From the NCBI GenBank assembly GCA_947561715.1, contig OX387200.1, positions 4,280,501 through 4,344,500 of the forward strand: DNA of 64,000 nucleotides, written 5' to 3'. A program made the translations under genes and the position numbers. The notes beneath the pieces are model-generated. The model saw only the letters and a program-made list of their open reading frames with translations. It was not told where the DNA came from and made no database searches. Source of the stretch: Ascidia mentula (taxonomy: Eukaryota > Chordata > Ascidiacea > Phlebobranchia > Ascidiidae). Shown in pieces: positions 33,353 to 64,000 of the stretch; positions within the stretch are counted from its first letter, which is position 1, and the number at the start of each line of letters is the position of its first letter.

Positions 33353-34380
33353 TTAACACTGCGTGCCCAGCGCCACGGGTAGGAGCTGTCGAACTTCTTT
33401 CTTCCACTTTTTGCAGCGCACGTAATCTTCGATGTAGTGAGGAGAATGGGCTGCACTGAATGAAGTGCTACGCACTGACGAAATACCTGAGACGAAATAT
33501 TTGAGAAGAACTGTCACTCCGCATAGATGTTCGTTGATCCCTCGGTTGGCAACCTGGTATTCAGCATCTTGACATTTCGTCACCCCTTTGCAACATTTAC
33601 ACTTGCCGTCCACGAACGGCCCCACGCGGAAAATATCTTGACAGCCTCGGTCACCAATGGCAGCAGATCCTCCCTTGGCACAATCATCGTTTTCGAATTC
33701 GATGTTTAGGACGACCTGTCGGTGAAACATTTTAATTTAAAATCTCTAAAAAGCGAATTAAAGTTGCTGGGAATAAACTGAAAAAATCAATCTGGTAGAC
33801 AGATGTTTAAAATCACAAAAATATATTTCGGCCGGTAAAGGGCATCATCAGTTTCTATGGAATCAAACCCATTATTCGTGACGGAAACAAGTTAAAAACA
33901 TCAAGGCCATTTTTCTTTCAGTATAACTAATTAAACAAGCTTAGATATGCATCTGTATTTCTGGGCATAACAGAACGTTCTCAGCAACCTTTGCAATGCC
34001 GGGTGTTGCAAGTGAAATTCCACCGATGCATATAATTGCTGACATCTCCTTGATTTTCGAAAATCCTGGATAGACCTGTAAGTGCTTATAGGCTTCACAC
34101 ACCATCTTTGCCCCTTGGCTATGACAAAACCACACTAAGCTTATCAGGTCGCACGTTTTACATTCTTTTGCAATACAATTCTCGCCATCAAGTTCTCATC
34201 TTCTTTTAGCAGCGATGGACTTTTGTTGGGCAAGACTTGCAACACCGGGTCAAAATCGAGTCCGAAAATGCTTTGGACCATTTGTTGGAATAACGTCTCG
34301 TAGTCTTCAGTCTTCAAGCCACCGTAACCAGCCACGTAACAAACAGTGGCGTTTGGATAAAGCATGGATGGTTTTAACAT
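33353..34380 (-). pseudogene. Alpha/beta-hydrolase-like family gene, frameshifted copy
   Basis: Exons 34380-33989 and 33715-33353 match the two-exon family but exon 1 is 392 bases, one short of a whole number of codons. The frame breaks next to a TTTT run on + (34166-34169): before it the product reads toward a premature stop at 34144, and after it the conserved L-V-W-F-C-H-S-Q-G-A-K-M-V resumes one frame over. Exon 2 is intact, with N-D-D-C-A-K, C-K-C-C and H-Y-I-E-D-Y. Also divergent: V-A-G-Y-G-G for V-P-G-L-G-G and Gln for His after the nucleophile Ser. Either a young pseudogene or an assembly error in a homopolymer. Confidence 0.7.
33826..33855 (-). ncRNA. Hammerhead-core-like motif
   Basis: On the minus strand CTGATGA (33851-33845) is followed by a short GCC/GGC stem and GAAA (33829-33826). 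The two conserved core boxes are exact, but I find no convincing stem I or cleavage triplet. It is probably the remnant of a dispersed element. Confidence 0.35.
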
Positions 34381-34779
34381 GCTTGAGACACAAACCCTTT
34401 TGCAATCCTTCTAGAAACCACATTTGTTTACACAAACAATAAAATGACATAATACAACACACCACGTCTTTGTATGTTAGCACAAAAGCGTTCTGTACCA
34501 CCTTCTTGATACAAAATAGTTTGGCCCTGCCCGGTACTTGGTAATCCTTGCAGCACTGCACTGTTACTATGCAGCAACATACTGACTTTCTCACAAGGAA
34601 AAATAAATACCATTTGTTTAAACAGTTTGTTTGCTAAGCGAAACCTTACTTTCCACACTTGAATAACATCACTCATGTTTTTTTTATGATACAGCCAGCA
34701 TATGAAACAAGGAACAAGAATACAGAGTTTGTGCGTTTCATATATCCATTAGGTTTCAGCAAGTCACAGCATATACTAA

Positions 34780-35150
34780 CAGAGTCTAAAAAAATACACC
34801 CGGACAAAGTTACAAATCGCTGTGGATACCTTGCAGGCACTGTAGTACCACTTGTTACAGCGCGCATATTCTTCGATATAGTGAGGAGAATGCACAGTAC
34901 TTGATGAAGCACTATATAGACTGGTTTGACAGAGCAGACAATCCGCAAAAATATTTATTTGTGCCTCGGGTGGAGTTGTGTTATCTTGCATCGTTATAGG
35001 TTAGTTTATGCACCGTTGCAACATTTACACTTGTCCCAACAGGAATAACTAAATTGTTTTGGAAAGATGGCAGTGGATCCGCACATCGCGCGTAAATGAC
35101 ATGTGGATGATAATCGAAAGTTCACAATCACAAATTCACCAACTTGACCC
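34780..35150 (-). pseudogene. Dead exon 2 of hydrolase-like family (unit A)
   Basis: Out-of-frame remnants read I-V-N-F-R-L-S near 35130, C-K-C-C-N-G-A near 35010-35030 and H-S-P-H-Y-I-E-E-Y near 34870-34900. That is the order of landmarks in a normal exon 2, but stops and frameshifts separate them. No functional exon 1 lies next to it. Confidence 0.65.
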
Positions 35151-35479
35151 TTTTGAACTCCTCGTGTTCTACGATTACTTAACGACAATACGCGTTCTCT
35201 TGGATCTAAAGCAGCTGGTGTTTTCTAATTCAAACTTGTGTTTCTTTAAAATACGTAGGGACAAAGGCTTGTAATATACCTTCCATAATTCTGCACATAA
35301 GTTTGTCCCTACCTTTTACTTAGTATAAGCCTTACAACATGACATTGTTACTGTACAGTATATAACATACTACTGCTTCATTGTAAGCAGTAGTGTTGGC
35401 CAAGTGTGTATGTGGGCGTCGCCCACCTCTTCGCAAGTAAACATAAATACCATTTGTTTATACAGTTTGTTTGCTAAGT

Positions 35480-35752
35480 TCAACGAATCCCTTGCGCCGA
35501 AAAACTCGCCGTTACTGGGGAATTCCTAGTCAGTTTCATTTCCTCCGCTTAGTAATATACTTCAATTCAGCAGGTAGAATTGGCCGACTTCAGGTCATTT
35601 CTCCAGTGCCTCGCTGCAAGAAACAAGCGCGCGCCACCGAAGCTCCTGGGAGCGTCGCGCCGAACGCGAGGTATGGGGCTCGTGTCGATGATGCTGTTTG
35701 AGGCCGATTCATAAAGAGACGCAAGTCGCGTTTGGTTCCGCACAATGTTACT
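35480..35752 (-). rRNA. 28S rRNA 5' end plus probable ITS2 fragment (unit A)
   Basis: On the minus strand, CTGCTGAATTGAAGTATATT, then ACTAAGCGGAGGA, and CAGTAACGGCGAG (within 35504-35575) are the hallmark 5' end of metazoan 28S rRNA. The GC-rich stretch up to about 35750 precedes it in the right position for ITS2. 28S similarity fades after about 35500, where the fragment joins a unit-specific sequence. This is a captured piece, not a working rRNA gene: no 18S, 5.8S or rest of 28S is present. Confidence 0.8.
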
Positions 35753-36439
35753 TTTTAAGCCCTGTTTAACAGAATAGCATTTAAATACATTTTATTCTTC
35801 ATGTAAATCGATTCATCATCCTTCACAATGGCGTGCATAACAGCACGTCACCATTGTACATATAGTTATTCGCCACTGTGTGTGGTAAAAAGAAAACTAA
35901 TTACGTTACAACACATTACATTCGGTTATTCACTCCACGGTATTTAATTTTTGTCGAAACTTAATTAAATGCTACTACTTGTTTTTTGATAAGGACATAC
36001 AGAGTATTTATTTTTTGTGTGTGCACAAATATGAGTGCTTTGATGGCGATTGAAAAAGTTAAAGTCTTCTCACTGCTTTATGGTCAATTTGATAAATAAT
36101 GTGTCCACAATATAGGATATACACCCTGACATGGTGTTACCATAGCCATTTTCATTGTACATCCAATATTGTTGACATATGTTTCTTACCATAGCATTGC
36201 ATATAGCATGTTGACAAAAAATATTTTTTTAGTCGTCGCCGTTACAACAGAAGAAACGGTAAAACGCACAAGGTATCATGAATTTACACAGAAACTATTT
36301 TTGCTTTCTTCTGTCAGTTTCTGTTGACGTTCGATAAATGCGGTGAAATACACAAAGCATCATGATAGTACACAGAAACGATTTCTACTAAAATTAAAAC
36401 ATTTTGTCCGAAACTCGCTTCAAAAGTAGAACCAAACTT

Positions 36440-37338
36440 TTAAGAATGGACTTGGCATTCAGTGTCGATGGCTACTGGTAAAAGTTTACGTACTTCTTTC
36501 TTCCATGATTTGCATTGCACATATTCGTCGATCAGATGGGAATATTCGGTGTTGACGCTTGTAGAAGGAAAAGACCTCACAAGCTCTTTTGCACTGACAG
36601 ACAACCCACAAGCGACTTCGGCCACACCCTTGCTGGCAGGTTTATATTCGACCTCGCGACGAGATTTGCCAGTGCAACATCCACACATTCCATCCTTGTA
36701 CGGGCCGATAACCAAAAGGTGGCCGACTCTTTTGCCAACTGTCACAGATCCACTTTTGGAGTATTGGTCATTTTCGAACTCGACGTTAAGAGTGACCTGC
36801 AAGAAAATATAAGTAAAATTTCATGCACTGAACTTTCTAAATCAGACAAAAAGTAGTTTGAAACATGAATGTATTTGTGGGTTTAAAAGACCGAAATAAA
36901 ATAAATACTGTATCAAAAGCGTTCAGGTGTATTACTTCTGCCATATCATCCGTTGCCAGCGAAGCTCCCCCAATGCAAATAATAGCCGAGCTTTCTTTGA
37001 TCTTGTCAAATACTTGAGGTTGAGATTTTTGTAGCTCCTTGTAAGCATCGCAAACCATTTTTGCACCATGGCTGTGGCAAAACCAAACTGTACTAATAAG
37101 TTCGCAAGCATCAATGTCACCAGCGGTTCTTTTAATGAACTGATTGAGCTCTTGGTCCACACTTTGCATTAGGACACTCTTGTTCGGCAAAACCTGGAGG
37201 TTGGGTTCAAAATCAAGACCAAATATACTTTCAACGAGTTGGTGCAAAATGGCTTTAAAAGGGGGAGGTCGTTTTACCGCCGATTCCAGGTACATAATAA
37301 ATTGTTGCTTTCGGGCACAAGATGTCTGTTTTCGTCAT
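36440..37338 (-). pseudogene. Hydrolase-like family gene in unit A, one-base insertion
   Basis: Exons 37338-36936 and 36796-36440. Exon 1 is 403 bases, one more than the 402 of its twins in units B and C. The extra base is in the T-run coding P-F-K (AAAA at 37257-37260 on +), giving a stop right after T-S-P-F. Downstream codons are otherwise clean: C-H-S-H-G-A-K nucleophile motif, intact exon 2 with C-G-C-C and S-H-L-I-D-E-Y. Since the rest is nearly identical to intact twins, the break is very recent or a base-call error. Confidence 0.7.
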
Positions 37339-39301
37339 GGTTCTGCTAGAATAGTACAGATCTATAAACCTATCGACCAGCCTTTAAACCTATAAACATA
37401 AAATAACTGTGTTCTTCATGTTTGCTGAATCTGAAGAGTTTCAAGTGAGTTTAGGTTTTAAACGACATGTATCATCGTGGCCGCGTATATACAAACAAAC
37501 TTAACGCCCTTTGTCGAATGGTAAAGAAAGACTCGCGTATAAAAAAATTGTTAAACCACGATAAACAACAGATGTTATCAAGATTGCAATATGTGCACGT
37601 ACTGGTAGATTTTTTTTTATGTAAGTAACACTTATTCTATGAATGTCCTTTGTTTTAAATAAACAACCAGTACAGTTTAAAACGTACGTAGTAAACACTG
37701 GCCTTTGGACACATCTTGGCGTTTTGGTCAGTCATTTCCATACATACAAAGGTCCTTCAGGAGCAAACAGAAATAAACATGTTTTGTTTCTTCGTCCCCC
37801 AAACAATGCAATGTATGATGAATTACATCAACAAGTTATTTATTTAGTTTTTTAACTGGAAACCATAATAAAGATCCAAATGCATTACAATCCTTGCAAA
37901 TCACACATTCATAAACCAAATTTAAGTAATAGGCTTTGCCGTCAAATTTTTTGCTTAAATTAAAGAAATGACAAATATTGTTCGGTCAGTCTCTAAACTC
38001 ATCCTGGTTCAACAAACCTGCTAACTCTGCGTTGCCGTTGCGAAGCCTTTTCGCAAAAGCAACCTGACACTTCATTGTCTCCTTTTGTATCGTCCGTTAT
38101 GTACTTTTGTAACTTCAACGATATTCCCGGTAGCGTGCACTCTGTGCCGAAACAGACAAGGGATTCTATTACGGTTCGCAAAGCGTAACCAAAACACTCC
38201 GGACAAAAGAACGGGTCAAATTTATTTTGAAGCAGCCAATGGAGATCGCCAAGAAACGGCACGTGACGTTGCGTTGTAGCACAGGGGTTTGTGTTGTGTA
38301 TACAAGGCGCTACGGTTTCCTCTTAAACAGGTGAATGCAAAAATACAGAGATCAAATATACACTGGTCCTTACCCAACTATTACAGGACCAGAGAGTCAC
38401 AAATCAGGCTTTTCCGAATATCTATTTTATCGCTATAAATAAGTTAAAAAATCCGGTCGAATCTGGTTGCGTTTTGACTCGACTTCAATGCTGCTGTGGT
38501 TATTGTCGTTTTGGATGGGTTTGATTTCGGTACATTGCTCATTGTGACTTTCCATACCCCAGGGTTGCCCCGGACATTTTTCATGTCGCGTATATGCAAA
38601 TAATTGACGAAAAGGTTCCTCATTTCGGTTTCCCCTTTGCGCTTGCGGTTTGAAAGAGGAACTACAGTTTCGCTGGTGCTGCGTGATTTGAAGTAGGGTG
38701 TACTTCGCCTGCCGACACGCCTGCAGGCGTAAATTTGGCTTTCACAAAAGACAGGTTTATAGGGCAGTGTTATTATCGCGTTTGCCGTACAGTATTATTA
38801 TGGATAGTTCTTAATTCGTTGAAATGTTCTCGTGCCCGTTTGCAATCGAACAAACACATGACCTTTGCATTTGAGAACTTTGCAGAACTTGAGTTGTAGT
38901 TCGAGAAATAATATTGCTTGTTGTTAACCGTCGTCTTGCCGCTCCAATTACAAAGAAGTGTATGTATCTTAGCTTGGTGAATACCTATTTGCGAAACCAT
39001 TGCGGGTTTGTTAAAACGTAGATTGAAAGGAGAAACAATTGCGATATGTTTTCCGAAATAACTAAAGAGTTGAAGTAAGAAAAAACTCAACTTTGTAATA
39101 AATAGTGGCCTCGCATGTATTTGTGAGATAACAATAACATTATAGACAGTGAAGTGTGTGTGATTGTTGACTGTATTTCTTGTGAACAACTTCTGACTGG
39201 TTTGGAGCTTGGCGGATGTAAGTATTTTTCCCGCGGACTTGTGTAATAGCGGTGTAGCGATACGGTGATACGACACGAATGACGATGTGTTTTTTGCATA
39301 G
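37339..39301. other. Inter-unit region with duplicated divergent promoter segment
   Basis: 37690-38760 is a second copy of 55340-56460. It starts with a truncated minus-strand exon 1 (codons for M-T-D-Q-N-A-K-M-C-P-K-A-S-V-Y-Y-V, about 37730-37688). It then carries about 0.9 kb of spacer and the 5'-flank repeat (about 38610-38805) that also occurs near 50620, 56290 and 57480. A minus-strand open frame at 38262-37999 is broken by an early stop in the other copy, so I do not call it a gene. Confidence 0.5.
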
Positions 39302-39697
39302 GTTACCATCAACGTGGAATTTAAAAACGATGAAATAGCGAAGGGCGGCGCAAACCTGATCGGTGCGCGGAGGGGACAAATTCTGAAAGTTGGCCCGTTC
39401 AAAAATAGATCGTGCCTTTGTTGCGTCGAGGATTCGAAGCACGAACCCGAACTCAAAGCAACGAGGAAAAGTTTTGATGGGATTTCCCTCGGTATATCCA
39501 CGGCATTGCGAGGTGCGTCGACCACAGCCAGCTCTAGTTCCGCCGGTGACCTCGACGAAGAGAAAGCACATTACATTGTTGAATGTAAGAAGTGGAGACA
39601 ACGCGTACAACAGATGCTACCGATAGGTCAACCCTGTCAAACCCATTCGAGGAGTTCAACCCTAATTGAAGAGACCTTCGAGTTTATCTTTGCGTAA
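39302..39697 (+). pseudogene. Orphan exon 2 of hydrolase-like family
   Basis: A TTTTGCATAG acceptor precedes an open exon 2 very similar to that of the 48.6-kb gene. It has N-V-E-F-K-N-D, C-L-C-C and K-A-H-Y-I, and an open tail to TAA. A 9-base deletion changes H-Y-I-G-E-Y-L-Q-C to H-Y-I-V-E-C. No exon 1 with V-P-G-L-G-G or H-S-H-G exists in the 1.5 kb upstream, so it lacks the nucleophile half and is probably dead. Confidence 0.75.
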
Positions 39698-40670: not shown

Positions 40671-40984
40671 GTTCTACGATTACTCAACGACAATACGCGT
40701 TCTCTTGGATCCAAAGCAGCTGGTGTTTTCTAATTCAAACTTGTGTGTCTTTAAAATACGTAGGGACAAAAACTTGTAATATACCTTTCATAATTCTGCA
40801 TGTAAATGTGTCCCTGCCTTTTACTTGGCAAGCCTTACAACATGGCACTGTTACTATCAGTATATGACATACTACTGCTTCATTGTAAGCAGTAGTGTTG
40901 GCCAAGTGTGTATGTGGGCGTCGCCCACCTCTTCGCAAGTAAACATAAATACCATTTGTTTATACAGTTTGTTTGCGAAGTTCA

Positions 40985-41956: not shown

Positions 41957-42854
41957 TTAAGAATGAACTTGGCATTCAGTGTCGATGGCTACTGGTAACA
42001 GTTTACGTACTTCCTTCTTCCATGATTTGCATTGCACATATTCATCGATCAGGTGAGAATATTCGGTGTTGACGCTTGTAGAAGGAAAAGACCTCACAAG
42101 CTCTCTTGCACTGACAGACAACCCACAAGCAACTTCGGCCACACCCTTGCTTGCAGGTTTATATTCGACCTCGCGACGAGATTTGCCAGTGCAACATCCA
42201 CACATTCCATCCTTGTACGGGCCGATGACCAAAAGGTGGCCGACTCTTTTGCCAACTGTCACAGATCCACTTTTGGAGTATTGGTCATTTTCGAACTCGA
42301 CGTTAAGAGTGACCTGCAAGAAAATATAAGTAAAATATCATGCACTGAACTTTCTAAATCAGACAGAAAGTAGTTTGAAACATGAATGTATTTGTGGGTT
42401 TAAAAGACCGAAATAAACTAAATACTGTATCAAAAGCGTTCTGGTGTATTACTTCTGCCATATCATCCGTTGCCAGCGAAGCTCCTCCAATGCAAATAAT
42501 AGCCGAGCTTTCTTTAATCTTGTCAAACACTTGAGGTTGAGACTTTTGTAGCTCCTTGTAAGCATCACAAACCATTTTTGCACCATGGCTGTGGCAAAAC
42601 CAAACTGTACTAATAAGTTCACAAGCATCAATGTCACCAGCGGTTTTTTTAATGAACTGATTAAGCTCTTGGTCTACACTTTGCATTAGGACACTCTTGT
42701 TCGGCAAAACCTGGAGGTTCCGTTCGAAATCAAGACCAAATATACTTTCAACGAGTTGGTGCAAAATGGCTTTAAAGGGGGAGGTCGTTTTACCGCCGAT
42801 TCCAGGTACATAATAAATTGTTGCTTTCGGGCACAAGATGTCTGTTTTCGTCAT
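41957..42854 (-). CDS. Alpha/beta-hydrolase-like protein, unit B (Ser-Asp-His split over two exons)
   Basis: Exons 42854-42453 and 42313-41957 with a 139-base GT-AG phase-0 intron; 252 residues. Exon 1 has Y-Y-V-P-G-I-G-G (14-21) as a likely oxyanion loop and W-F-C-H-S-H-G-A-K with candidate nucleophile Ser89, then S-A-I-I-C-I-G-G-A-S-L-A-T. Exon 2 gives V-T-L-N-V-E-F-E-N-D (candidate Asp144), C-G-C-C (172-175) and S-H-L-I-D-E-Y (candidate His221). The order fits the alpha/beta-hydrolase fold and a small cytosolic esterase or lipase. No substrate can be inferred and no named family is recognised. There is no signal peptide or membrane segment. It is almost identical to the unit C gene, implying recent duplication or gene conversion. 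The ATG opens M-T-K-T-D-I-L-C-P-K, a C-P-K start shared by several copies. Confidence 0.75.
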
Positions 42855-43114: not shown

Positions 43115-43290
43115 TTCTTTTAGCAGCGATGGACTTTTGTTGGGCAAGACTTGCAACACTGGGTCAAACTCGAGTCCAAAAATGCTTTCGACCATTTGTT
43201 GAAATAACGTCTCGTAGTCTTTAAGCCACCGAAACCAGCCACGTAACAAAAAGTGGCTTTTGGGCAAAGCATGGATGGTTTTAACATGCT
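43115..43290 (-). pseudogene. Truncated exon 1 fragment, 33-kb gene type
   Basis: The minus strand reads D-Y-E-T-L-F-Q-Q-M-V-E-S-I-F-G-L and on to L-L-K-E-D-E, nearly identical to the start of the 33-kb gene. It is frameshifted ahead of that segment and cut off at the B/C unit boundary before the nucleophile motif. It marks a duplication breakpoint inside an exon. Confidence 0.75.
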
Positions 43291-45330: not shown

Positions 45331-46228
45331 TTAGGAATGAACTTGGCATTCAGTGTCGATGGCTACTGGTAACAGTTTACGTACTTCCTTCTTCCATGAT
45401 TTGCATTGCACATATTCGTCGATCAGGTGAGAATATTCAGTGTGGACGCTTGTAGAAGGAAAAGACCTCACAAGCTCTCTTGCACTGACAGACAACCCAC
45501 AAGCAACTTCGGCCACACCCTTGCTTGCAGGTTTATATTCGACCTCGCGACGAGATTTGCCAGTGCAACATCCACACATTCCATCCTTGTACGGGCCGAT
45601 GACCAAAAGGTGGCCGACTCTTTTGCCAACTGTCACAGATCCACTTTTGGAGTATTGGTCATTTTCGAACTCGACGTTAAGAGTGACCTGCAAGAAAATA
45701 TAAGTAAAATATCATGCACTGAACTTTCTAAATCAGACAGAAAGTAGTTTGAAACATGAATGTATTTGTGGGTTTAAAATATCGAAATAAACTAAATACT
45801 GTATCAAAAGCGTTCTGGTGTATTACTTCTGCCATATCATCCGTTGCCAGCGAAGCTCCCCCAATGCAAATAATAGCCGAGCTTTCTTTAATCTTGTCAA
45901 ATACTTGAGGTTGAGATTTTTGTAGCTCCTTGTAAGCATCGCAAACCATTTTTGCTCCATGGCTGTGGCAAAACCAAACTGTACTAATAAGTTCACAAGC
46001 ATCAATGTCACCAGCGGTTTTTTTAATGAACTGATTGAGCTCTTGGTCCACACTTTTCATTAGGACACTCTTGTTCGGCAAAACCTGGAGGTTGGGTTCA
46101 AAATCAAGACCAAATATACTTTCAACGAGTTGATGCAAAATGGCTTTAAAAGGGGTGGTCGTTTTACCGCCGATTCCAGGTACATAATAAATTGTTGCTT
46201 TCGGGCACAAGATGTCTGTTTTCGTCAT
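45331..46228 (-). CDS. Alpha/beta-hydrolase-like protein, unit C
   Basis: Exons 46228-45827 and 45687-45331; 252 residues, same intron position and phase as unit B. All candidate catalytic positions are kept (Ser89, Asp144, His221), as is the C-G-C-C cluster. Differences from unit B are few and conservative, for example T-T-T-P for T-T-S-P and E-P-N for E-R-N. The reading frame through the T-run that is broken in unit A is intact here. The 3' side carries the same spacer and rDNA fragment. An intracellular hydrolase role is inferred from the motif order only. Confidence 0.75.
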
Positions 46229-48600: not shown

Positions 48601-49765
48601 ATGGAAATGGTCATGTTGTGTCCAAAGGCCAGTGTGTATTACGTACCTGGGTTAGGGGGCTGCAACCCTGATGACTTCAAAGCTCCGTTTCGACAATTGA
48701 TGGAAAGCATATTCGGTCTCACCTTCCAACCAAAGCACCAAGAAATTCTTAAGAACGAGTGTAAATTTGCACTGAGTCCAGACGAAAAGTTGATCCGGAA
48801 AATACAGGATATTGTCAATAATCACACTTTCTGTAACCAAGTGAGCTTGGTGTGGTTTGCTCACAGTCACGGTGCGAAGATGGTTTGCGACGCTTACAAG
48901 AAACTTAAACGCACTTCAACGTTCGCCAAGATGAGGACAGACTCAGCTATTATCTGTATCGGGGGAGCTTCGTTGGCAACCGAGGACTTAGCCCAGGTGA
49001 TAGTATTGATTTTTATTGCATCATCATATCTGCTTATCCATAATATGCAATATTTCCAGTTTCACAGAAACTTTAATTTCAGGCTAAAATCTGTCAGCCT
49101 TCGTGAATGTGGTATAATTATATAAAAGGTGGAAATCGTCAGGGCGAATTGCAACAGAATAGAGAATGATTTCCAGAATCGGGTGCAAAAACTGGGAGTA
49201 TTCTAAACATTCCCACACAATCAATTAAAGTTATTTCCAGTGTTATCTTTGTAAAAGCAATACGAATGAAGAATTTTATTGGCCTGGGAAACATGTACTT
49301 CCAAAGGTTAAATGTGTTCCAACGTTCATTCTTAAGCAACTAATTTGTGTTTTTGCATAGGTTACCATCAACGTGGAATTTAAGAACGATAAAATAGCGA
49401 AGGGCGGTGCAAACCTGATCGGTGCGCGGAGGGGTCAAATTCTGAAAGTTGGCCCGTTCAAAAATAGATCGTGCCTTTGTTGTGTCGAGGATTCGAAGCA
49501 CGAACCCGAACTCAAAGCAACGAGGAAAAGTTTTGATGGGATTTCCCTTGGTTTATCCATGGCATTGCGGGGTGCTTCGACCACAGCAAGCTCTAGTTCC
49601 GCTGGCGACCTCGACGAAGAGAAAGCGCATTACATTGGTGAATATCTACAATGCAAGAAGTGGAGACAACGCGTGCAACAGATGCTACCGATAGGTCAAC
49701 CCTGTCAAACCCATTCAGGGAGTTCAACTCCAATTGAAGAGACCTTCGAGTTCATCTTTGCGTGA
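48601..49765 (+). CDS. Alpha/beta-hydrolase-like protein (48.6-kb copy)
   Basis: Exons 48601-48996 and 49361-49765, phase-0 intron of 364 bases; 266 residues. Landmarks: Y-Y-V-P-G-L-G-G (13-20), the family insertion F-G-L-T-F then E-I-L-K-N-E-C, W-F-A-H-S-H-G-A-K with Ser89, I-C-I-G-G-A-S-L-A-T. In exon 2: N-V-E-F-K-N-D (Asp142), C-L-C-C (170-173), a short Ser-rich linker (205-214), K-A-H-Y-I-G-E-Y (His222) and K-K-W-R-Q-R-V-Q-Q-M-L-P. The tail extends about 15 residues past the usual T-H-S end, as in the orphan exon at 39.3 kb. The two exon 2 copies are close relatives, so the orphan was duplicated from this type. No targeting signal is visible. Confidence 0.75.
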
Positions 49766-50909: not shown

Positions 50910-51300
50910 ATGAACTTGTTGTTAAATGTTGACTTCCTACGCCAATTAAAAAGAAGCGCAGATCTAGGCATTGTGAATAGCCAACTGTTCAATGCAAATA
51001 TTGCGGGTTTGTTGGGCGTAGATGGAAAGGAGAAACGGTTACAAGAAGTTCTTCCGAACGAATGCAAGTTCGCAATGAATCCTAACCGAAAGTTGTTCAT
51101 GACGATAAGGAATATTGTTTACAAGAAAGCTTTCTGCGATGGGGTTTGTTTGGTGTGGTTTGCTCACAGTCATCGTGCGTAGATGGTTTTCGACGCTTAC
51201 AAGGAACTGAAACGCACTGCGGTGTTTAATAAAATATGGAAAGGTTCAGTAATTATCTGCCTGTGTCGAGTAGTTTATGCATACACTAGGCTCTTGTGGG
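50910..51300 (+). pseudogene. Exon 1 pseudogene with nonsense codon in the nucleophile motif
   Basis: From about 51040 the sequence matches exon 1 of the 58-kb gene from E-V-L-P-N-E-C onward. Its 5' part is instead the upstream flank of that gene, so an internal deletion joined flank to mid-exon and removed V-P-G-L-G-G. W-F-A-H-S-H is followed by Arg and then TAG (51180-51182) in place of G-A-K. Decay continues after it, and no donor or exon 2 follows. Confidence 0.8.
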
Positions 51301-51388
51301 TAATATGCCTACCAACATCAGCAATAGTATGTACTTTTACTTTAATTTTGTGATTTGTTTAGGCATAAGGTGTTTCGAATACTAAACA

Positions 51389-52337
51389 ATGTGCCCTAAA
51401 GCTGAATTATGCCCCAAATTTGGCACGTACTTTGTGCCTGGTTTAGGAGGAAGCAACCCAAATGACTTCGAGAAACCATTTAAAACGATTGTATCTACTG
51501 TCTTTGGTCTTGAGTTTCAGGAAAACATCGAAGAAGTTTTACCTAACAGATGCAAATATGGTATAAATGACGATGTGGAACTAAAGCAAAAGATAAAATA
51601 CATTGTCGAGGGCCACGAATTTGGCAACGAAATTAGTCTGATTTGGTTTACTCACAGTCATGGTGCAAAGATCATCTGCGTTGTTTACAGCGAGCTTCGC
51701 AAAAGTTCCAGATTTCCTGCTATCAGGAATGGCTCAGCTATAATCTGTCTTGGTGGTGCCTTCCGTGCAACTAAAGATTTGGCCAAGGTAAGGACCATAA
51801 AGTATGGCCATTTCTAATACAACAGAAAATATCAGTTAAAGAAAATAAAAAAAATTAATAAAATACAAAACATTATTATTTCCCTTATGACAGGTTGTTT
51901 TCAACGTCAATCACAAGAACGACGACATTGCAAAAATCGGTTCAACAATTTACGGAGGTAGAGAGGGGGAAATTTTGAGCATAGGACCCTATGAAAACGG
52001 ATCATGCAGCTGTTGCGATGAGTCAAATGAGTCACCTTCGTCTTCGTTTCCGTCTTCGCCTTCGTCATCGCCTTCGCCTTCGTCTTCGTCTTCGGCTTCG
52101 TCTTCGTCTTCGTCTTCGTCTTCTTTTGGCTGCGATGCTCATTATATGGACGCATATCTCGCATGTCGAAAGTGGAGATCGAAGTTAAAAAATATGTTTC
52201 ACCTGAAAAACACAGAAAAAGGGGAAAAGGGTCAAAGTTCAAACGTATTAAAACAAGCAGTCCTAATGCTGTGCCCTTTATTTCTGTTTTACGTTCTCTT
52301 CTTGTTTTTTAGATTGGTTTTTCCGTCTTTTGGATGA
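51389..52337 (+). CDS. Alpha/beta-hydrolase-like protein with Ser-tract and C-terminal membrane segment
   Basis: Exons 51389-51787 and 51894-52337 with a 106-base intron; 280 residues. Exon 1: Y-F-V-P-G-L-G-G, W-F-T-H-S-H-G-A-K (Ser90), I-C-L-G-G-A-F-R-A-T. Exon 2: N-H-K-N-D (Asp143), C-S-C-C (171-174), then a Ser/Pro tract (about 178-211) encoded by a TCTTCG-type repeat, D-A-H-Y-M-D-A-Y (His216). Uniquely in this cluster the C-terminus (about 255-280) is strongly hydrophobic, Leu/Phe-rich, with one Arg near the end. That is what a tail-anchored or C-terminally inserted membrane protein looks like. Its closest local relative, at 60.3-61.2 kb, lacks this tail, so it arose by a change in the last codons. 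A membrane-bound hydrolase is inferred. Confidence 0.7.
52028..52130 (+). repeat. Coding TCTTCG-type microsatellite
   Basis: Interrupted repeat of TCTTCG/CCTTCG hexamers inside exon 2 of the hydrolase-like gene, read as Ser-Ser and Ser-Pro. The hexamer keeps the frame when it expands or contracts, so linker length can vary without breaking the gene. Confidence 0.85.
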
Positions 52338-54408: not shown

Positions 54409-55400
54409 TTAGGAATGGGTTTGACAGGGTTGACCTATTGGTAGCATCTGTTGTACGCGTTGTCTCCACTTCTTGCATTGTAGATATTCATCAATGTAAT
54501 GCGCTTTCTCTTCGTCGAGGTCGCCAGCGGAACTAGCACTAGACGCGCCGGCTGAGGTTGAAGCACCCACCATTGCAGCGGATATACCGAGGCCAAATCC
54601 ACGAAGGCTTTTATTCGTTGATCTGACTTCAGGCTTGTGACTCGAGCCGTCGACACAACAAAGACATGATTTATCTTCAAACGGGCCGACTTTCATTATT
54701 TCTCCCGTGCGCTCACCAATCAGGTTTGAACCGCCCTTTGCTATTGTATCGTTCTTGAATTCAACGTTGAGTACAACCTACGGACAACAGAAATCAGTTG
54801 CAGAAAGAGAAAGGGAAGCACACTGAAGTTTCATTTGCAAACATTAACACGTATTTAAACTCCACGATCGTTTAATTGTTTCGTTGCTATGGGCAAACAT
54901 GAAACATTTAGACACGGGGAATAATTGACAATACTCAACCTTTAGACAGGACCCACGTAAGGTTTAGTTTTTTATACTACTGTTACCTGGGCCAAGTCTT
55001 TAGTTGCCAGAGAAGCTCCTCCAATGCAGATAATAGCTGAACCTTTCCATATTTTGTTGAACGAAGGAGTGCGTTTAAGTTTCTTGTAAGCGTCGCAAAC
55101 CATCTTCGCACCGTGACTGTGAGCAAACCACACCAAGCTCACCTGGTTACAGAAAGTGTGATCATTGACAATATTTTCAATATTTGCCAATAATTTCATA
55201 TCTGCGTTTATTGCAAAGTTGCATTCATTCCTAAGAATTTCTTGGTGCTTTGGTTGGAAGAAAATGCCGAATATGGTTTCCATCAATTGTCGAAACGGAG
55301 CTTTGAAATCATCAGGTTTGCTGCCCCCTAACCCAGGTATGTAGTATAAACACTGGCCTTTGAACACATCTTGGCGCTTTGGTCGGTCATTTCCATACAT
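54409..55400 (-). CDS. Alpha/beta-hydrolase-like protein with frame-changed N-terminus
   Basis: Exons 55400-54987 and 54777-54409; 260 residues from the ATG at 55400. Core motifs are intact: Y-Y-I-P-G-L-G-G (19-26), W-F-A-H-S-H-G-A-K (Ser95), N-V-E-F-K-N-D (Asp148), C-L-C-C (176-179), Ala/Ser linker, K-A-H-Y-I-D-E-Y (His231). The N-terminus differs from all siblings. Compared with the related fragment at 37.7 kb there are two extra bases near 55345-55348, which put the usual M-x-M-T-D-Q-x-A-K start out of frame. An upstream ATG in the new frame restores an open start with a novel sequence (M-Y-G-N-D-R-P-K-R-Q). So the gene may survive with a replaced N-terminus, or the ATG context is fortuitous and it is dying. 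Confidence 0.65.
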
Positions 55401-56487
55401 ACAAAGGTCCTTTAGGAGCAAACATAAATAAACATGTTTTGTTTCTTCGTCCCCCAAACAATGCAATGTATAATGAATTACATCAACAAGTTATTTATTT
55501 TTTTTTTTTACTGGAAACCATAACAAAGATCAAATTGCATTACAATCCTTGCAAATCACACATTCATGAACCAAATTTAAGGTAATAGGCTTTGCCGCCA
55601 AATTTTTCGCCCAAATTAAAGAAATGACCGTTGTTCAGTCGACCTCTAAACTCAACCTGGTTCAACAAACCTGCTATTGGTGCAACTCTGCGTCGCCGTT
55701 GCGAAGCCTTTTCGCCAAAGCAACCTGATACTTCATTGTCTCCTTTTGTATCGTCCATTATCTACTTTTTGTATCGTCCATTATGTACTTTTGTTCAACG
55801 ATATTCCTGGTAGCGTGCACTCTGTGCCGAAACAGACAAGGGATTCTATTACCGTTCGTAAAGCGTAACCAAAACACTCCGAACAAAAGAACGGGTCAAA
55901 TTTATTTTAAAGCAGCCAATGGAGATCGCCAAGAAACGACACGTGACGTTGCGTTGTAGCACAGGGTTTGTGTTATGCATACAAGGCGCTACGGTTTCCT
56001 CTTAAACAGGTGAATGCAAAAATACAGAGATCAAATACACACTGGTCCTTACCCAACTATTACAGGACCAGAGAGTCACAAATCAGGCTTTTCCGAATAT
56101 CTATTTTATCGCTATAAATAAGTTAAAAAATCCGGTCGAATCTGGTTGCGTTTTGACTCGACTTCAATGCTGCTGTGGTTATTGTCGTTTTGGATGGGTT
56201 TGATTTCGGTACATTGCTCATTGTGACTTTCCATACCCCAGGGTTGCCCCGGACATTTTTCATGTAGCGTATATGCAAATAATTGACAATAAGGTTCCTC
56301 ATTTCGGTTTCCCCTTTGCGCTTGCGGTTTGAAAGAGGAACTACAGTTTCGCTGGTGCTGCGTGATTTGAAGTAGGCTGCACTTCGCCTGCAGACACGCC
56401 TGGCTTTTACAAAGGACAGGTTTATAGTGCAGTGTTATTATCGCGTTTGCTGTACAGTGTTAGTATGGATAGTTCTTAATTCGTAGA
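55401..56487. other. Divergent flank segment, duplicate of 37.7-38.8 kb
   Basis: About 1.1 kb separating the minus-strand 55-kb gene from the plus-strand exon at 56.5 kb, closely similar to 37690-38760 in the same orientation. It includes a local duplication of a TATCGTCCATTAT phrase (near 55750 and 55775). It is likely a shared promoter region for divergent gene pairs. No coding exon is supported. Confidence 0.55.
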
Positions 56488-56857
56488 AATGGTCCTGTGC
56501 CCGTTTGTAATCGAAGCGAAAGGGGGTTCGCATCTAATCGGTAAGCAAAGAGGCGATATTTTCAAAGTCGGTCCGTTTAAAGATGGATCATGCCTTTGTT
56601 GCAACGAGGACTCGCCGCACAAACCCGTACTCAAACCAACCAGGAAAAGCTTTCGTGGGGTTTTCGTTGGTATATCCGCAGCAACGCGAGGTGCGTCAAC
56701 GTCAGCTGGTGGGTCCAGTTCTAGTTCTGCTGGCGGCCACGGCGAAGAGAAGGCGCATTACATTGGTGAATATCTGCAATGCAAGAAGTGGAGACAACAA
56801 GTGCAAGAGATGCTACCCATGTGCCAACATTGTCCTACCTGTTTGGCGACTTTGTAA
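56488..56857 (+). pseudogene. Truncated exon 2 fused to 5'-flank repeat
   Basis: An ATG in the 5'-flank repeat (M-V-L-C-P-F-V-I-E) runs in frame into exon 2 beginning at A-K-G-G-S. The strand with N-D-x-I has been lost, so the candidate catalytic Asp is missing. Exon 1 with the Ser is absent too. C-L-C-C, a Ser/Gly linker and K-A-H-Y-I-G-E-Y remain, to TAA. It is an open frame of about 120 codons with a plausible start, but without two of three catalytic positions it cannot be a working hydrolase. Confidence 0.7.
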
Positions 56858-57973
56858 AACTTTTCAATTCAAGTATTATTGTTACGGTTTGGTTGCTGAT
56901 GTTTATGTACAAAAAAGTTACTAAACCCTCACAACTGTTTACAACTGCTGTTTGTAACAAACAAAAAATACTAAACTTGTTTTATTTTAGCAATTATAAG
57001 AAAGGTGTTTACAAACCGACCCGGTTAAAAACGTTCAATGTGATTGATTTTTTCTACATTTTAAAACCACATCATGAAAAACCTTGCGAGGTCGTCATGT
57101 TGCAGGCTAGAAGTTTCAAATTCACGCCCGGTCGGATTGAACCTGCGCCCGTCAGTAAACCGCCTGTGTTTTCAACGGGGTACAGTTGCGTTCTCACCGA
57201 ACTTAGCACTAAAGAGTTGAGTTTAAGCACAGCCAGCGTCAGGCGTCAGACGTCACAGTCTTACAAGAATAGTAACCACCAACGCAGGTAACATACAAAA
57301 TGAGTATGATGCCTGTTCATCATTTTCCACATCGTTTGTTAACGCTACCAAAGCCGTTTAACAGCAGTATATGCAGCTTACAGGTTAAGAAACGTTTGGG
57401 CGATGCTGCTGTGGTGGAAATGGGGTTAAGTGTGCGAAACTTGTAAATAGCTGCTCTGCCGTGCGCGTGCAAATAAATGACTAAAAGGTTCCTCATTTCG
57501 GTTCCCCTTTGGGCTTGCGGTTTAAAAGAGGAAGTACAGTTTCGCTGGTGCTGCGTGGTTTGTACTGGGTTGGACTTCGTCTGCAGACACGCCTAGCTTT
57601 AACAAGGACAGATTTATTGTGCAATGTTATTATCGTGTTTGTAGTACAGTATTAGTATGGACAGTTCTTAATTCGTTGAAATGGTTCTGTGCCCGTTCGT
57701 AATCGAACAACTACATGTGATGACTTGCAGCCTTTCGAGGACTTTACAGAACTTGAGTTGTTATTCGAGAAATATTGCCTGTTGTTAACGTTGTCTTGCC
57801 GCCCCAATTACAAAGAAGTGCAGATCGTGGCATGGTGAATTATTAGTGAAGCCATTGCGGGGTTGTTGAAGGTAGTTTGAAAGAAAAACGATTGCGATGT
57901 GGGTTGCATTGTCACCGTATATAAATAATATCACGATTTTACGCAGACAAAGGTTGTTTTTATTGTAATAAAC
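56858..57973. other. Upstream flank of the 58-kb gene
   Basis: Contains a tRNA-like B-box fragment near 57115-57150 (minus) and the fourth copy of the 5'-flank repeat at about 57480-57730. A long open frame at 56779-57291 overlaps the preceding exon in another frame and has no recognised domain. Confidence 0.45.
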
Positions 57974-59011
57974 ATGGACATGTGTCCAAACGCCAGCGTG
58001 TATTACGTACCAGGTCTGGGGGGAAGCGACCCTGCTATCTTCAAAACTGATTTTCGGCAATTAATCGATACAGTTTTCGGTCTTACTTTCAAACCAAAGA
58101 CCCAAGAAGTTCTTCCGAACGAATGCAAGTTCGCAATGAATCCTGACCGAAAGTTGTTCATGACGATAAGGAATATTGTTTACAAGAAAGCCTTCTGCGA
58201 TGGGGTTTGTTTAGTGTGGTTTGCTCACAGTCACGGTGCGAAGATGGTTTGCGACGCTTACAAGGAACTGAAACGCACTCCGGTGTTCAACAAAATATGG
58301 AAAGGTTCAGCAATTATCTGCATCGGCGGAGCTTCGCTTGCTACTGGTGAACTAGCCCAGGTAAAAGATACAGAATTATCAAATCATTTTACTTCTAGGC
58401 TATTAATGCATGTTTTAAAGACACGTTATTTCCATTTGCTAATAACCTTCGCATGACCAAACCAAACTAAAACAGAGGTTTTGCAAGTGGTGAATGATTG
58501 CATAACATAAGCAAACTAAAATAAAATTTTTCCCAAATACTCAACTGATGTATTTTTGCTAATTTTCCTTCATAATTTGGCAAACATTGAAAAAAAACGC
58601 GTCTCTCGCGTGCAGGTCGTCCTCAACGTGGAATTCCAGAATGATGACGTGGCGAAGGGAAGTTCCAACCTGATCGGAGAACGAAATGGCGAAGTTCTAG
58701 AAGTCGGTCCGATTATCGACGGTTCGTGTCGTTGTTGTGAGGGAAACTCCCTCGGACCCCAACTCAAGCAAACAAACAAAAGCCTTGAGGGTATTTCCCT
58801 CGGTATAACCACAGCAGTAAGGGGAATCTCGGGAGTCTCGACTCGCGTTTCCAATTCCACCACTTCTGGAGATGAAGAGGAAGGGAAGGCGCATTATATC
58901 ACGGAGTACATGAAATGCAGGAAATGGAGACAACGAGTCCGACAGTTGCTACCGATGGGAAAACCTTGCTGCACACATTCGACGGGGCCTTTAAGTGCCT
59001 ATTTCTCCTAA
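57974..59011 (+). CDS. Alpha/beta-hydrolase-like protein (58-kb copy)
   Basis: Exons 57974-58360 and 58616-59011, phase-0 intron of 255 bases; 260 residues. Start M-D-M-C-P-N-A-S-V-Y-Y-V-P-G-L-G-G, W-F-A-H-S-H-G-A-K with Ser86, I-C-I-G-G-A-S-L-A-T. Exon 2: N-V-E-F-Q-N-D (Asp139), C-R-C-C (167-170), a Ser/Thr-rich linker ending in an acidic G-D-E-E-E-G, K-A-H-Y-I-T-E-Y (His222). It is the intact parent-like relative of the 51-kb pseudogene, with which it shares both exon 1 and the upstream flank. A small TTATTGTAATAAAC palindromic stretch lies just before the ATG, without known meaning. Confidence 0.75.
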
Positions 59012-60288
59012 TGTGGATATGTGTGGTAGATGGGAAAAGCCGATGGGAAAAACTGTTTGACAAACCACATGGGAAGGCAGTTTTGTTTAGTCTTATATAA
59101 TTTTTGACAAGCATTTTGACCGGCAATTTGAAACAGCGTTTAAGAAATCTTGCTCCTGACAGTTATTTCAGGGCATGACCAATAAAATGTTCAGTTATTT
59201 TGTATGTTTCGCATGCAACCAAAAACGAGATATCTAAGCAGATTAATACGTCCAATTGCCTTGCCGAAATCAATAAAAAATCTGCAGCATAAGGGATTTT
59301 GCGAAATTGAGTCCAAAAATGTCCCTATATACAGTCTTGGAACTAAGGATGCTTTGATAACGCTTGTGGTGTGTTAAGTGCAAGAAAATCCAGATTGCAA
59401 CCATTTTTTTCGATAATACAACGTAAGAGGCAACAAACATCACCAGCACCGGACATTTCAATGAAAAAAACAACAGAAAACAAGAAACATGAAAATGAAT
59501 ATTGATCGAGCAGTTAGCGTTGGCAGCTGCTGGGATAGCAAACAACTGCTACAACTTTATCCTTACAAATATCGAACTAAAATGAATTTTTACCAACGCA
59601 ATTTAACACTGCTAAAAGTAGATTTCATCTGGCTTTGCATAATAATTTAGGTTATGTAGCACGGTAAACTATTGCGTTCGCATTTATTTAATTGGGATAT
59701 TTGGTACGGCAATGTTTGTTACATTGGTATATATAATGTCAAAAAGAAAACTTTTTTTATGTAGCCTACAATGAAAAAATTTACATTTTAGGAATTAGGT
59801 TTATCTACTATTCATGCCAAAATTTTGTTGTTTTGTTTCTTTATTTCTAAAAAAACGACACAGTAGTACAAAAAAATTTACAAGCAAAAAAAACAGGATA
59901 TAAACGTAAAACAGAGATACTGGTAACAAAAAAACTTTAAGTGTGCTTAGCAAAACACAGTTGTAAGACTGGAATAAATGAAAGTGCACACAGAAGATGT
60001 GAAACAAACAAACAGCAATCAAACTATGTACATCACAAAACAATTACAATGTGAAACGAATAGGCCTTAAAACTGCAATAGTACGCGCAATAAGTGGCGG
60101 TTGCCTTTGTTTGGATGAAGTGGCAATTTGGCTCTTGAGAAATAATTCAAAGTTATATTTACAAACCACGTTTCAGTACAGGCGGATGTCCCCAAAACCA
60201 ATTTCTTGTGTAAAACAACGCTGCCAAAAGTTCTAAATTTAACAATAATGACGAGTAAGAGAAGTTAACTTTTAGGACAAATTCATGA
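59012..60288. other. Intergenic region with dispersed ~115-bp repeat
   Basis: About 59418-59530 matches 62443-62555 (shared words ACAACGTAAGAGGCA and ACATCACCAG). It is otherwise AT-rich with long A/T runs. No supported gene. Confidence 0.5.
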
Positions 60289-61183
60289 TTAATTCATGCA
60301 AAGTCGGCGTAAACGTTGCCTAAACCTTTGACAGCACGTGACAGTTGCTAAATCTTCTCCTATGATAAACATATTTCCTAACATTATTCGCCAATTTCGA
60401 CATGCCAGATACCCATCCAAGTAATGGGCGTTCTTGTCAATCGATACGGAACTGGAAGCAGAAAAAAACAGAGAAGAAAAAAAGGAGGGCGCCCATGAAG
60501 AAGTATTTGGGTTACCTGCAATGACTTCAGGGTTTGACTTGTCGCAACAGAGGCATGTTCCGTTTTCATACGGTCCAATGCTTAACATTGTCCCCTCTGT
60601 ACTTCCGTAATATTTTGAGCCGATTTCCGCTATTTTGTCGTTCTTGTAAGTAACGTTGAAAACAACCTGTTAAAATGATTGAAGTTTTTCAGAAAAAATA
60701 TTGCTTTTTTATTTAAATTTTCGTATTTTCTCAAATAGGTTTTTGTTATATCAGAATTGGCCATGCTTTGTGTTTGGTGCTTACATTCGCCAAATCGCCA
60801 GTTGCACGGAAAGCACCACCAAGACAGATTATAGCTGAGCCATTCCTGATTGCCGGAAACTTGTCACTTTTACGAATATCGTTGTAAACATCACAGATCA
60901 TCTTTGCACCATGGCTGTGTGCAAACCAAATTAAGCTAATTTTGTCGCCAAATTCATGTCCCTTGACAATTCCTTTTAGCATTTGTTTAAGTTCTACATC
61001 GTCGTTAAGACCTAGTTGACAGTTGTTGGGTAGAATTTCTTTGATGTTTCCTTCATATTCGGTGCCGAAGACAGTGGACACAATCGTTTTAAATGATTTC
61101 ATGTAGTCCCGTGGATCTCTTCCTCCTAAACCAGGCACAAAGAATGTGCTAAATCCGGGACTCACTTTAGCTTTACTTGTCAT
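60289..61183 (-). CDS. Alpha/beta-hydrolase-like protein (60-kb copy)
   Basis: Exons 61183-60785 and 60666-60289, phase-0 intron of 118 bases; 258 residues. Exon 1: F-F-V-P-G-L-G-G, I-W-F-A-H-S-H-G-A-K (Ser90), I-C-L-G-G-A-F-R-A-T. Exon 2: N-V-T-Y-K-N-D (Asp143), C-L-C-C (171-174), a Phe/Ser-rich linker, N-A-H-Y-L-D-G-Y (His214). It ends in an arginine-rich tail (Q-R-F-R-Q-R-L-R-R-L-C). With the 51.4-kb gene it forms a subgroup marked by F-R-A-T and G-P-Y-E-N-G. The sister copy ends in a membrane segment where this one has a basic tail, so the C-terminus evolves fast. The gene is isolated from its neighbours by about 1.2 kb on one side and 2 kb on the other. Confidence 0.75.
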
Positions 61184-63322
61184 TGTTTTGTATTCGATAC
61201 ACCTTGCGCTTCAACAATAAAAACAAACAAGGTAATATGAAGTGATACTAAACGCAGTTTCGTACACGAGATTCATTTGTATAACCGGTGGTCACAAAGA
61301 TTACCTGACTGAAAAGTAGAATTCATTGTTACTATTCAAAACATTTATTGTTACACTCTTTAATTGTGGTAGGAAGTTTAGAAGTCCAAGTATCTTACTG
61401 TCACACATGTAGTTTCAAGTTATTTTGCATACTAATGTAAATTATTTTAAAATTTTGACTATCAGTTGTAATTCAGATTACTTAACTTGAGCATTACTAA
61501 ATTCAAAAAACCCATCAGCTGGTCATAATCAAACAGAAGCAGCCAACATATAACACATTAGTTTCCAACGTATAATATTTTCAATCTCACTCAAATATAA
61601 CATTTTTCCAGTTCTTTTGCTAACCACTGAGTGCGGAGTAATTTAACTATTTTTCGGAATACCGGCTTAGAAAATAATCTCTTTTCGTCAGGGAATGTGC
61701 AAGCTTTGGAAGATGGGCTGCTTCTTATACCCACACTATTTAAAACTCGAGTCTTACCCATTGTTCTGTTTGGTACGTGTTTTGGCTTGTAGGCTATCAA
61801 ATCACAAAATATGTGTCCAGTGAATGAACTGATTTGCTGTTGCCTACTCCGTTACCTTTGTGTTATCATGTGAAAGTTTTTCGTCGCTGCAATTCAAACA
61901 AACACCTTTGAAATACGAAACGTTTTAGCGTTTGTTGTTCTGGTTGATTTCGTCAGCAAACTGAACTTTAAACAAGGTCGCCATTCAATTGTTTTACTGA
62001 GTTTCGTTTTAATGAGCAAATAGCTATGATGTCGGAATGTATCAATTAACAAGATTTTTTCGGTTAACTTTGTGAAAATTCTTGACATGCAAAAAGACTT
62101 GGTAAAAAAAATCTTACTCGGTTGTATAGAGTCAGCTAAGATGGCAAGACAGCGTCTTTCACAAAATCGACGAAAAAATATGCAAAAAACGGTATGTGTG
62201 TCCTTAAACGTCCTTGTTCTTCATTTAAAACGTCTGATACGGTAGAATAAAAAAATTGGTGCAGCAGTTGGTGTTTGACATTTGGAAGGTTGAGGGGATT
62301 AAGCTTACATTGATTATAAACATATTAGTAGGCATAATCTCCACAAGTACTTTCATAACTTATCGAAAACACAGGTTCAACATATCGTCATGTCACAATA
62401 ACTAGTACAGAAAATCCACATCGCAAATAAGTTTTACAAGACTACAACGTAAGAGGCAGGAACATCACCAGAATCGAACATTTCAACCAAAGAAAAGAAA
62501 ACAAGACGCATAAAAATGTATTTTGATTGAGACGTTTTTGTTGGCACTGTAACATCCGCCCATTGCAAACCATATACATAGCGATATAATGCGTTGTTGA
62601 CAACAGTGCACAAGTATTGTATGAAATATTATCCTGTTTACATTCAAAATCCGTATAAAACTAACCAATTTAATGTGACCAAAATAACTTTTTGAATTCT
62701 AGCGACATCATGTGACTTTATTGACCAATCAGCTTTCAGCAGGGAGAGCATAAAAAGCTCAGTATACACTTATAATCCCATTCTACTTTGCCACTGCTAT
62801 TTACTCTGAGCTACTTAAATCTGGTAGAATCAACGTTTGCAAAGTTATAACTGCAACAAATACTTCAACCGAAGATTTCGTGATGTACAGTTTTGGTAAA
62901 CCGAATGACTTCATCGAGTATAACAGTTCTCCAGAGAATTCGCAAAGCTCTGCTTAGCTTATCAGGCGAGGCAGAAGGATTCTAAACAGACCTAGAGAAT
63001 CACCACGCGCTCGCGCCATTCAGGCACTGTTAAATATCTCTGAAACACTTAAAGTTTTTAACAGCGCTTGAATTTGTGGAAAAGTATGGGAGCATAGAAT
63101 GAGTTCGCACGAAATAAATAAAATATTGCAAAATTACACAAGCCAAAACAAACAAATTTCACACTTTTGTTGGGCATTTAAATACTGTAGTATTGGCAAC
63201 CAGTACATAAACATACCAAAATACTAAAAACATTCAAACACCGGCTTATTTGTCCAAAACGTTTTGTCGAAGGCAAAAATTCACGGTAGTGTGAATAATA
63301 ATGTATTATATTATCAAAAATT
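61184..63322. other. Intergenic region
   Basis: Holds the second copy of the ~115-bp dispersed repeat (62443-62555). Several short minus-strand open frames (61591-62668) show no domain, start context or splice partners. Nothing else is recognised. Confidence 0.4.
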
Positions 63323-64000
63323 TTAAATCGAGTGAACTCTGCACGTTTTGTGATGCAGTGGAAGCATTTCTTGCAAACTTTGTCTCCATCTTCGGCACTC
63401 GAGGTATTCACCGATATAGTGGGCCTTTTCCTCGTTGGAACTTGAACTGGATTTGGAACTGAATGAGGATTTGGAATTGGAGCTCGAGCCACTGTTGGAT
63501 GAACCCTGTACACTTATAGACAATCCGTGGGAGATTCCCAACGCAGATTTCTTCGTTTGCTTCATAACTGGTTCGTGCGATGTGCCACTGTCGCAACATA
63601 GACACGAACCTTTCTTAAATGGGCCGATCTGAAGAACTTTCCCATTTCTGTCACCGATCAAGTTGGAGCCACCGTGGGCAATTTTGTCGTTCTTGTATTC
63701 CACGTTAAGCACAAGCTATGATTAAAACAAGTAGGTTTTAGAAGAACTGTGCTTCTGGCGTAAGGCTGCGTAAATTCTATTTCTAACCGACGTTTCGTCT
63801 GCCATCCAGCGAGACTTCTTACAGGTTAGCAACAGTAACACTACAACACAGGCATTATTTTAACATTGAAAAGGGTGATTTTAGAGTTTGAAAACTAAAG
63901 TTTAAAGGTTTGATTTGCTTGGGCCATGTAAAAGATATTGTGACAAAATCAGCTTATTTGTTTTACATTTAACACAGCTACCTTTGCTAAGTTTTCTGTT
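63323..64000 (-). CDS. Alpha/beta-hydrolase-like protein, partial at window edge
   Basis: Exon 2 is 63715-63323 (130 residues and stop). The last 19 bases of exon 1, 64000-63982, read T-E-N-L-A-K before a GTAGCT donor, matching the D-L-A-Q/K exon end of siblings. The intron is 266 bases. Exon 2 shows N-V-E-Y-K-N-D-K-I-A with the candidate Asp, C-L-C-C, a long Ser/Asn/Lys linker, K-A-H-Y-I-G-E-Y with the candidate His, and R-R-W-R-Q-S-L-Q-E-M-L-P. The nucleophile half lies beyond the window, so completeness cannot be judged. The 53.3-kb fragment is its closest dead relative. A hammerhead-like retroelement end lies in the intron. Confidence 0.65.
63775..63835 (-). ncRNA. Hammerhead-like repeat end, ...GAAACGTCGG
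   Basis: On the minus strand a GTCT...AGAC stem sits directly before GAAACGTCGGTTAG. The upstream box is CTGTAAGA, not CUGAUGA. Same class of dispersed element as at 17.3 kb; probably inactive. Confidence 0.35.

What the first reader, a model, noticed from the sequence alone, without database searches (positions are those of the whole stretch)
33353..64000. Unnamed two-exon alpha/beta-hydrolase-like family in a birth-and-death cluster
At least a dozen copies, whole or broken, share V-P-G-L-G-G, (A/C)-H-S-H-G-A-K, N-D-x-(I/V)-A and H-Y-(I/L/M)-x-x-Y in fixed order. The Ser, Asp and His are kept in every intact copy, and the order and spacing fit an alpha/beta-hydrolase triad. Exon 1 ends right after G-G-A-(S/F)-x-A-T, so one intron splits nucleophile from Asp/His. 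I do not recognise a named family. Such lineage-specific amplification of a small hydrolase suggests diet, defence or reproductive function.
Basis: partly seen in the sequence, partly recalled or inferred. Interest (0 to 1): 0.8.

Follow-up and report, generated by a model that had tools for sequence, protein, structure and literature searches.

The report
Unnamed serine-hydrolase gene cluster in ascidian
A sea-squirt chromosome carries a tandem cluster of two-exon genes whose predicted proteins fold like small lipases and keep a Ser-Asp-His catalytic triad, yet they match no named protein family that I searched.

The parts
41957..42313 (-). gene G42, exon 2 (Asp, His, CxCC; stop included)
42453..42854 (-). 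gene G42, exon 1 (oxyanion loop, nucleophile Ser) from the first Met of the frame; 252 aa with exon 2
45331..45687 (-). gene G46, exon 2
45827..46228 (-). gene G46, exon 1; near-identical tandem copy of G42 (dS 0.091, dN 0.007)
48601..48996 (+). gene G49, exon 1; 266 aa with exon 2
49361..49765 (+). gene G49, exon 2
51389..51787 (+). gene G51, exon 1; 280 aa with exon 2
51894..52337 (+). gene G51, exon 2; Ser-rich loop before His and a hydrophobic C-terminal tail
54409..54777 (-). gene G55, exon 2
54987..55400 (-). gene G55, exon 1; 260 aa with exon 2
57974..58360 (+). gene G58, exon 1; Ser codon 58229-58231; 260 aa with exon 2
   Evidence: folded
58616..59011 (+). gene G58, exon 2; Asp codon 58643-58645, His codon 58892-58894
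   Evidence: folded
60289..60666 (-). gene G61, exon 2
60785..61183 (-). gene G61, exon 1; 258 aa with exon 2
63323..63715 (-). gene G64, exon 2; exon 1 lies just outside the window (C67:4344485-4344874)
33353..34380 (-). broken copy: exon 2 open, exon 1 in two pieces not in one frame
36440..37338 (-). broken copy of the G42/G46 type: exon 2 open, exon 1 in two frames
39302..39697 (+). lone exon 2, 92.5% identical to that of G49, with a 3-residue gap two residues after the catalytic His
43133..43287 (-). exon 1 fragment in two frames
50964..51263 (+). exon 1 fragment (71% to G58) with a stop just after the nucleophile motif
56516..56839 (+). lone partial exon 2

Best explanation
The cluster encodes an unnamed family of small (about 250-280 aa) serine hydrolases with the alpha/beta-hydrolase fold, in an ascidian tunicate. 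Exon 1 supplies the oxyanion loop (V-P-G-L-G-G) and the nucleophile Ser in an H-S-H-G elbow. Exon 2 supplies the acid (N-D at the end of a strand) and the His (H-x4-Y before the last helices). The enzyme most likely cleaves an ester or thioester by the usual acyl-enzyme route, with a lidless minimal-lipase/cutinase-like core. The first core strand begins at residue 3 in the G58 model, leaving no room for a signal peptide, so it probably acts inside the cell. The genes multiply and decay by tandem duplication under purifying selection. Shown: gene structure by homology, conservation, selection, and both exons in one joined protein. Predicted: fold. Inferred: catalysis, location, substrate class.
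Against: No Foldseek match of the G58 model reaches E 0.001 (best 2.1e-3, cutinase-like 7cc4). For the P0004 model Foldseek ranks RadA-, RAD51- and KaiC-type ATPases first (best E 5.2e-4, TM to query below 0.3 in the rows shown, rmsd about 8-12 A). The G58 model carries 85 intron-derived residues, and its exon-2 blocks are less sure (pLDDT 34-87). 12 of 17 weak Pfam families are not alpha/beta hydrolases. V-P-G-L-G-G is lacking in C70 and C67_18M. An upstream exon or signal peptide is not excluded: the start codons are simply the first Met of each frame, and P0001's predicted start gives a hydrophobic N-terminus. Triad distances were not measured. No transcript, protein or activity data were seen.
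Confidence: 0.82

Rival explanations
1. Pseudo-enzymes: the fold and triad are inherited, but the proteins now bind a ligand or partner rather than hydrolyse, as some plant alpha/beta-hydrolase receptors do (recalled).
Against: Ser, Asp and His are kept in all 13 other models, although identity to G49 falls to 31% in the ten-sequence alignment, and in P0004 at 18-32%.
Confidence: 0.12
2. A P-loop/RecA-like nucleotide-binding protein rather than a hydrolase.
For: Foldseek ranks RadA first and KaiC among the top rows for the P0004 model.
Against: I see no Walker A motif (GxxxxGK[ST], recalled) in the alignments. Those matches have rmsd of about 8-12 A and TM below 0.33. Realignment of 995 of the same 1000 candidate chains puts a cutinase-like protein, a cutinase and small lipases first. 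For the better G58 model hydrolases come first in both searches.
Confidence: 0.03
3. A dead cluster of decaying copies with no current function.
For: 16 of 31 exon-like matches belong to broken or partial copies.
Against: Eight intact genes with GT-AG introns, and dN/dS well below 1 even between old copies; relatives also occur in public contigs of unnamed source.
Confidence: 0.03

Closest known systems
Bacillus subtilis LipA (1i6w/1isp), 'minimal' lidless alpha/beta-hydrolase lipase
   Different: About 14% identity. Here H-S-H-G in place of the LipA motif A-H-S-M-G (recalled), a cysteine- and Ser-rich stretch before the His, no evident signal peptide, a eukaryotic two-exon gene.
Cutinases and cutinase-like enzymes (2czq, 7cc4, 5x88; Pfam PF01083)
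   Different: Below the Pfam cut-off; cutinases are secreted enzymes with disulphides and a GYSQG motif (recalled).
Pfam DUF900 (PF05990), alpha/beta hydrolase of unknown function
   Same: Best near-hit among hydrolase families, around the nucleophile (E 0.0028, 17.6 bits); also weak in P0002 and P0004.
   Different: Below the 20.5-bit cut-off; 34 residues matched in the best case; 2 of the 10 A1 members.
Human RBBP9 (2qs9, 9fcr), serine hydrolase
   Different: Lower Z than cutinases and LipA; not in the 50 rows shown for the G58 model.

Membership tests
alpha/beta-hydrolase fold superfamily | nucleophile at a sharp strand-turn-helix elbow, small-x-Ser-x-small | tested here: met
   (A/C/T)-H-S-H-G in 13 of 14 models, G-F-S-G-G in the C70 member; strand 78-85, Ser 86, helix 87-99 in the predicted model
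alpha/beta-hydrolase fold superfamily | order nucleophile, acid, His, with acid after a later strand and His before the last helix | tested here: met
   Asp 224 after strand 215-221, His 307 before helices 309-313 and 316-325 in the predicted model
alpha/beta-hydrolase fold superfamily | overall fold | tested here: met
alpha/beta-hydrolase fold superfamily | Ser, Asp and His within hydrogen-bond distance | not testable with these tools
   no coordinates are returned by the structure tool
alpha/beta-hydrolase fold superfamily | hydrolase activity | not testable with these tools
   needs bench work
Cutinase (PF01083) | Pfam profile above curated cut-off | tested here: not met
   only P0002, 15.2 bits against 25.9; not listed for the ten A1 members
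DUF900 (PF05990) | Pfam profile above curated cut-off | tested here: not met
   best 17.6 bits against 20.5
Chlamydial DUF687 (recalled as a lead) or another bacterial family | sequence relatives in prokaryotes or viruses, or a Pfam/NCBIfam hit | tested here: not met
   none of 44 pattern matches in GTDB genomes and none of 9 in viral contigs encodes a relative; no Pfam model above cut-off and none named DUF687 listed; no NCBIfam hit for the 2 proteins given. The pattern scan sees only relatives that share the core motifs
Lipase A (LipA) family | sequence-level family membership | tested here: inconclusive
   fold match only, about 14% identity; no PDB sequence match with alignment A1 at E up to 10

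The most novel reading that the evidence does not exclude
An alpha/beta hydrolase in which a metal (zinc) or redox cysteine cluster has been built between the last core strands and the catalytic His. CxCC, the Cys eight residues after the His and, in 9 of 14 models, a C-terminal CxxH or CxC would tether the His-bearing segment and could switch activity. The four core cysteines behave nearly all-or-none: all four in 13 of 14 models, none in the C70 copy that also lost Asp and His, one of four in P0004, which keeps the triad and a C-terminal CxC. P0004 shows that the set is not needed for the triad to be kept.
Probability: 0.25. Interest if true: 0.6.

Novelty: new member of a known kind. Interest (0 to 1): 0.42.

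Why it matters
It adds an unnamed serine-hydrolase family with a recent tandem expansion to the tunicates, the closest living relatives of vertebrates (recalled). Intact and broken copies sit side by side, with a probable pseudo-enzyme on another chromosome, which makes it a compact case for studying how a catalytic family grows and decays, and a ready target for activity-based profiling.

Tried and rejected
Bacterial origin or horizontal transfer: no prokaryotic or viral relative found by the pattern scans; only four relatives in three searches of about 5.8 billion proteins, all from 'lgn' contigs without names. This does not show that the family is tunicate-only: animal coverage of that database is unknown to me, and the search needs shared five-residue words.

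Known family by sequence: Pfam, NCBIfam (2 proteins) and PDB sequences gave nothing above cut-off or convincing. The lowest-E Pfam matches outside hydrolases, RepB_C (E 0.0056 in G49, over a stretch that includes the Ser), SR-25 (E 0.0062), MCD (E 0.014 in P0004) and OS-D (two members), are below cut-off and in one or two members; I take them as chance.

RecA-like fold: rejected as told under the rivals. Viral structure library: no match at E 0.001 or better; several of the weak ones are hydrolases.

An alignment of separate exon rows with P0004 as the only full-length row misplaced the nine exon-2 rows; it was dropped and remade with the read-through row.

Non-coding RNA in the window: no Rfam family at gathering score. 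Literature (open-licence PMC papers only): 2 listed of 2; 10 of 83; 8 of 1,594; 1 of 1; 1 of 1; 1 of 1; the letters HSHGAK, 0. None of the listed titles or abstract starts describes this family. I saw listings only; of PMC7986045 I saw passages.

Tree: only 2 of 15 inner branches are well supported, so finer history is not claimed; P0004, C70 and C67_18M are long branches.

Full report
What is there. Joining open frames at GT-AG sites placed by homology gives seven complete genes inside the window, G42, G46, G49, G51, G55, G58 and G61 (252, 252, 266, 280, 260, 260 and 258 aa from the first Met of each frame), and an eighth, G64, whose first exon lies just past the right edge. tblastn with the exons of 12 gene models (C70 and C67_18M were left out as queries) leaves 31 separate matches: 14 in the seven genes, one in G64 and 16 in broken or partial copies at about 11 places. 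Direct repeats at 34.7-46.4 kb, in three copies spaced about 5.5 and 3.4 kb, show recent duplications.

Genome. The window lies on a 22.7-Mb contig of a 196-Mb, 79-contig assembly. That genome holds 2,157 exact copies of the Ciona spliced leader (1,091 forward, 1,066 reverse) and none of the reversed control. PMC7986045 (passages seen) gives that sequence as the single spliced leader of Ciona intestinalis. The host is therefore a tunicate, very probably an ascidian; the species was not identified.

Family extent. With one exon 1 as query, 17 places match, 13 of them within 32 kb in this cluster, the others on C71 (two), C72 and at C67:18.26 Mb. A divergent exon 1 adds one on C70. Exon-2 searches agree for the others. 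Such counts are lower bounds, as the tool says. I assembled 14 models: eight from the window (G64 in part) and G66, C71a, C71b, C72, C70 and C67_18M. The last begins after a stop, without a Met, and lacks the GLGG part, so it may be broken. In all 14 the intron is GT-AG, phase 0, at the same alignment point, 106-364 bases long.

Selection and conservation. Of 78 gene pairs (C70 left out), eight have dS below 2; their dN/dS is 0.07, 0.18, 0.25, 0.34, 0.37, 0.37, 0.39 and 0.43, the values at dS 1.5-2 being rough. G42 and G46 differ by dS 0.091 and dN 0.007. The nucleophile Ser and the Gly two places on are present in 14 of 14 models; Asn-Asp, His and four cysteines (CxCC and one Cys eight residues after the His) in 13 of 14; the Tyr and Trp near the C-terminal helix in 14 of 14; the Gly of the GLGG loop in 12 of 14. 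C70 keeps Ser in a G-F-S-G-G elbow but has lost Asp, His and the cysteines; it is probably a pseudo-enzyme.

Relatives. Three protein searches in about 5.8 billion sequences returned four proteins in all, from 'lgn' contigs without names. P0001 to P0003 look like exon-1 frames that run into or stop at the intron. P0001 falls with the cluster genes, and P0002 and P0003 lie beside C71a, C72 and G66, in a tree whose relevant forks are not well supported. P0004 is a 262-aa protein in which exon-1-like and exon-2-like parts are joined exactly at the predicted junction, with Ser, Asp and His kept. Short of RNA data this is the best evidence at hand that the two exons form one protein.

Mechanism. 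The most likely working is the classic one: the Ser, activated by the His and Asp, attacks an ester or thioester carbonyl; backbone amides next to the V-P-G-L-G-G loop and after the Ser hold the oxyanion; water releases the acyl group. The best structural matches are lidless enzymes (recalled), which suggests an open active site. This is inference from fold and conservation. Cell location is inferred from the lack of room for a signal peptide: the first core strand starts at residue 3 in the G58 model. Against that, an upstream exon cannot be excluded without RNA data, and P0001's predicted start is hydrophobic. G51 ends in a hydrophobic tail and might be membrane-anchored.

Known or new. No Pfam, NCBIfam or PDB sequence match reaches its cut-off or convinces. 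By predicted fold it belongs to a very well-known superfamily; by sequence it is unnamed in the libraries searched. The part without a parallel that I know of is the cysteine set between the last core strands and the His. The literature searches listed in Tried and rejected showed nothing on this family among the listed papers.

Noticed in passing
C70:12235133 (L046:4133-5140): Single diverged family member with the same intron position; Ser kept in a canonical GFSGG elbow, but Asp, His and the cysteines are lost while the frame is open: probable pseudo-enzyme.
   Followed up: partly
52250-52337: G51 ends in a strongly hydrophobic C-terminal tail (LMLCPLFLFYVLFLFFRLVF) that its nearest relative G61 lacks; possible tail anchor.
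   Followed up: no
2225-9499: Three open frames on both strands resembling APH-type kinases (Pfam PF01636, E 0.0064, 5.1e-4 and 1.7e-5; only the last above cut-off); perhaps a second small duplicated family in the window.
   Followed up: partly
38285-38584 and 55964-56263: Segments 99% alike, 17.7 kb apart, each carrying a fragment of a G66-type exon 2: recent copy of already broken material.
   Followed up: no
51894-52337 and 63323-63715: The loop before the catalytic His is a Ser-rich low-complexity run that differs in length between copies.
   Followed up: no
G000 C1 about 15239666-15297871: Tandem spliced-leader sequence at 719-720-base spacing in several blocks.
   Followed up: no
20198-20494: Open frame with tetratricopeptide repeats (TPR_1 E 2.7e-9).
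   Followed up: no
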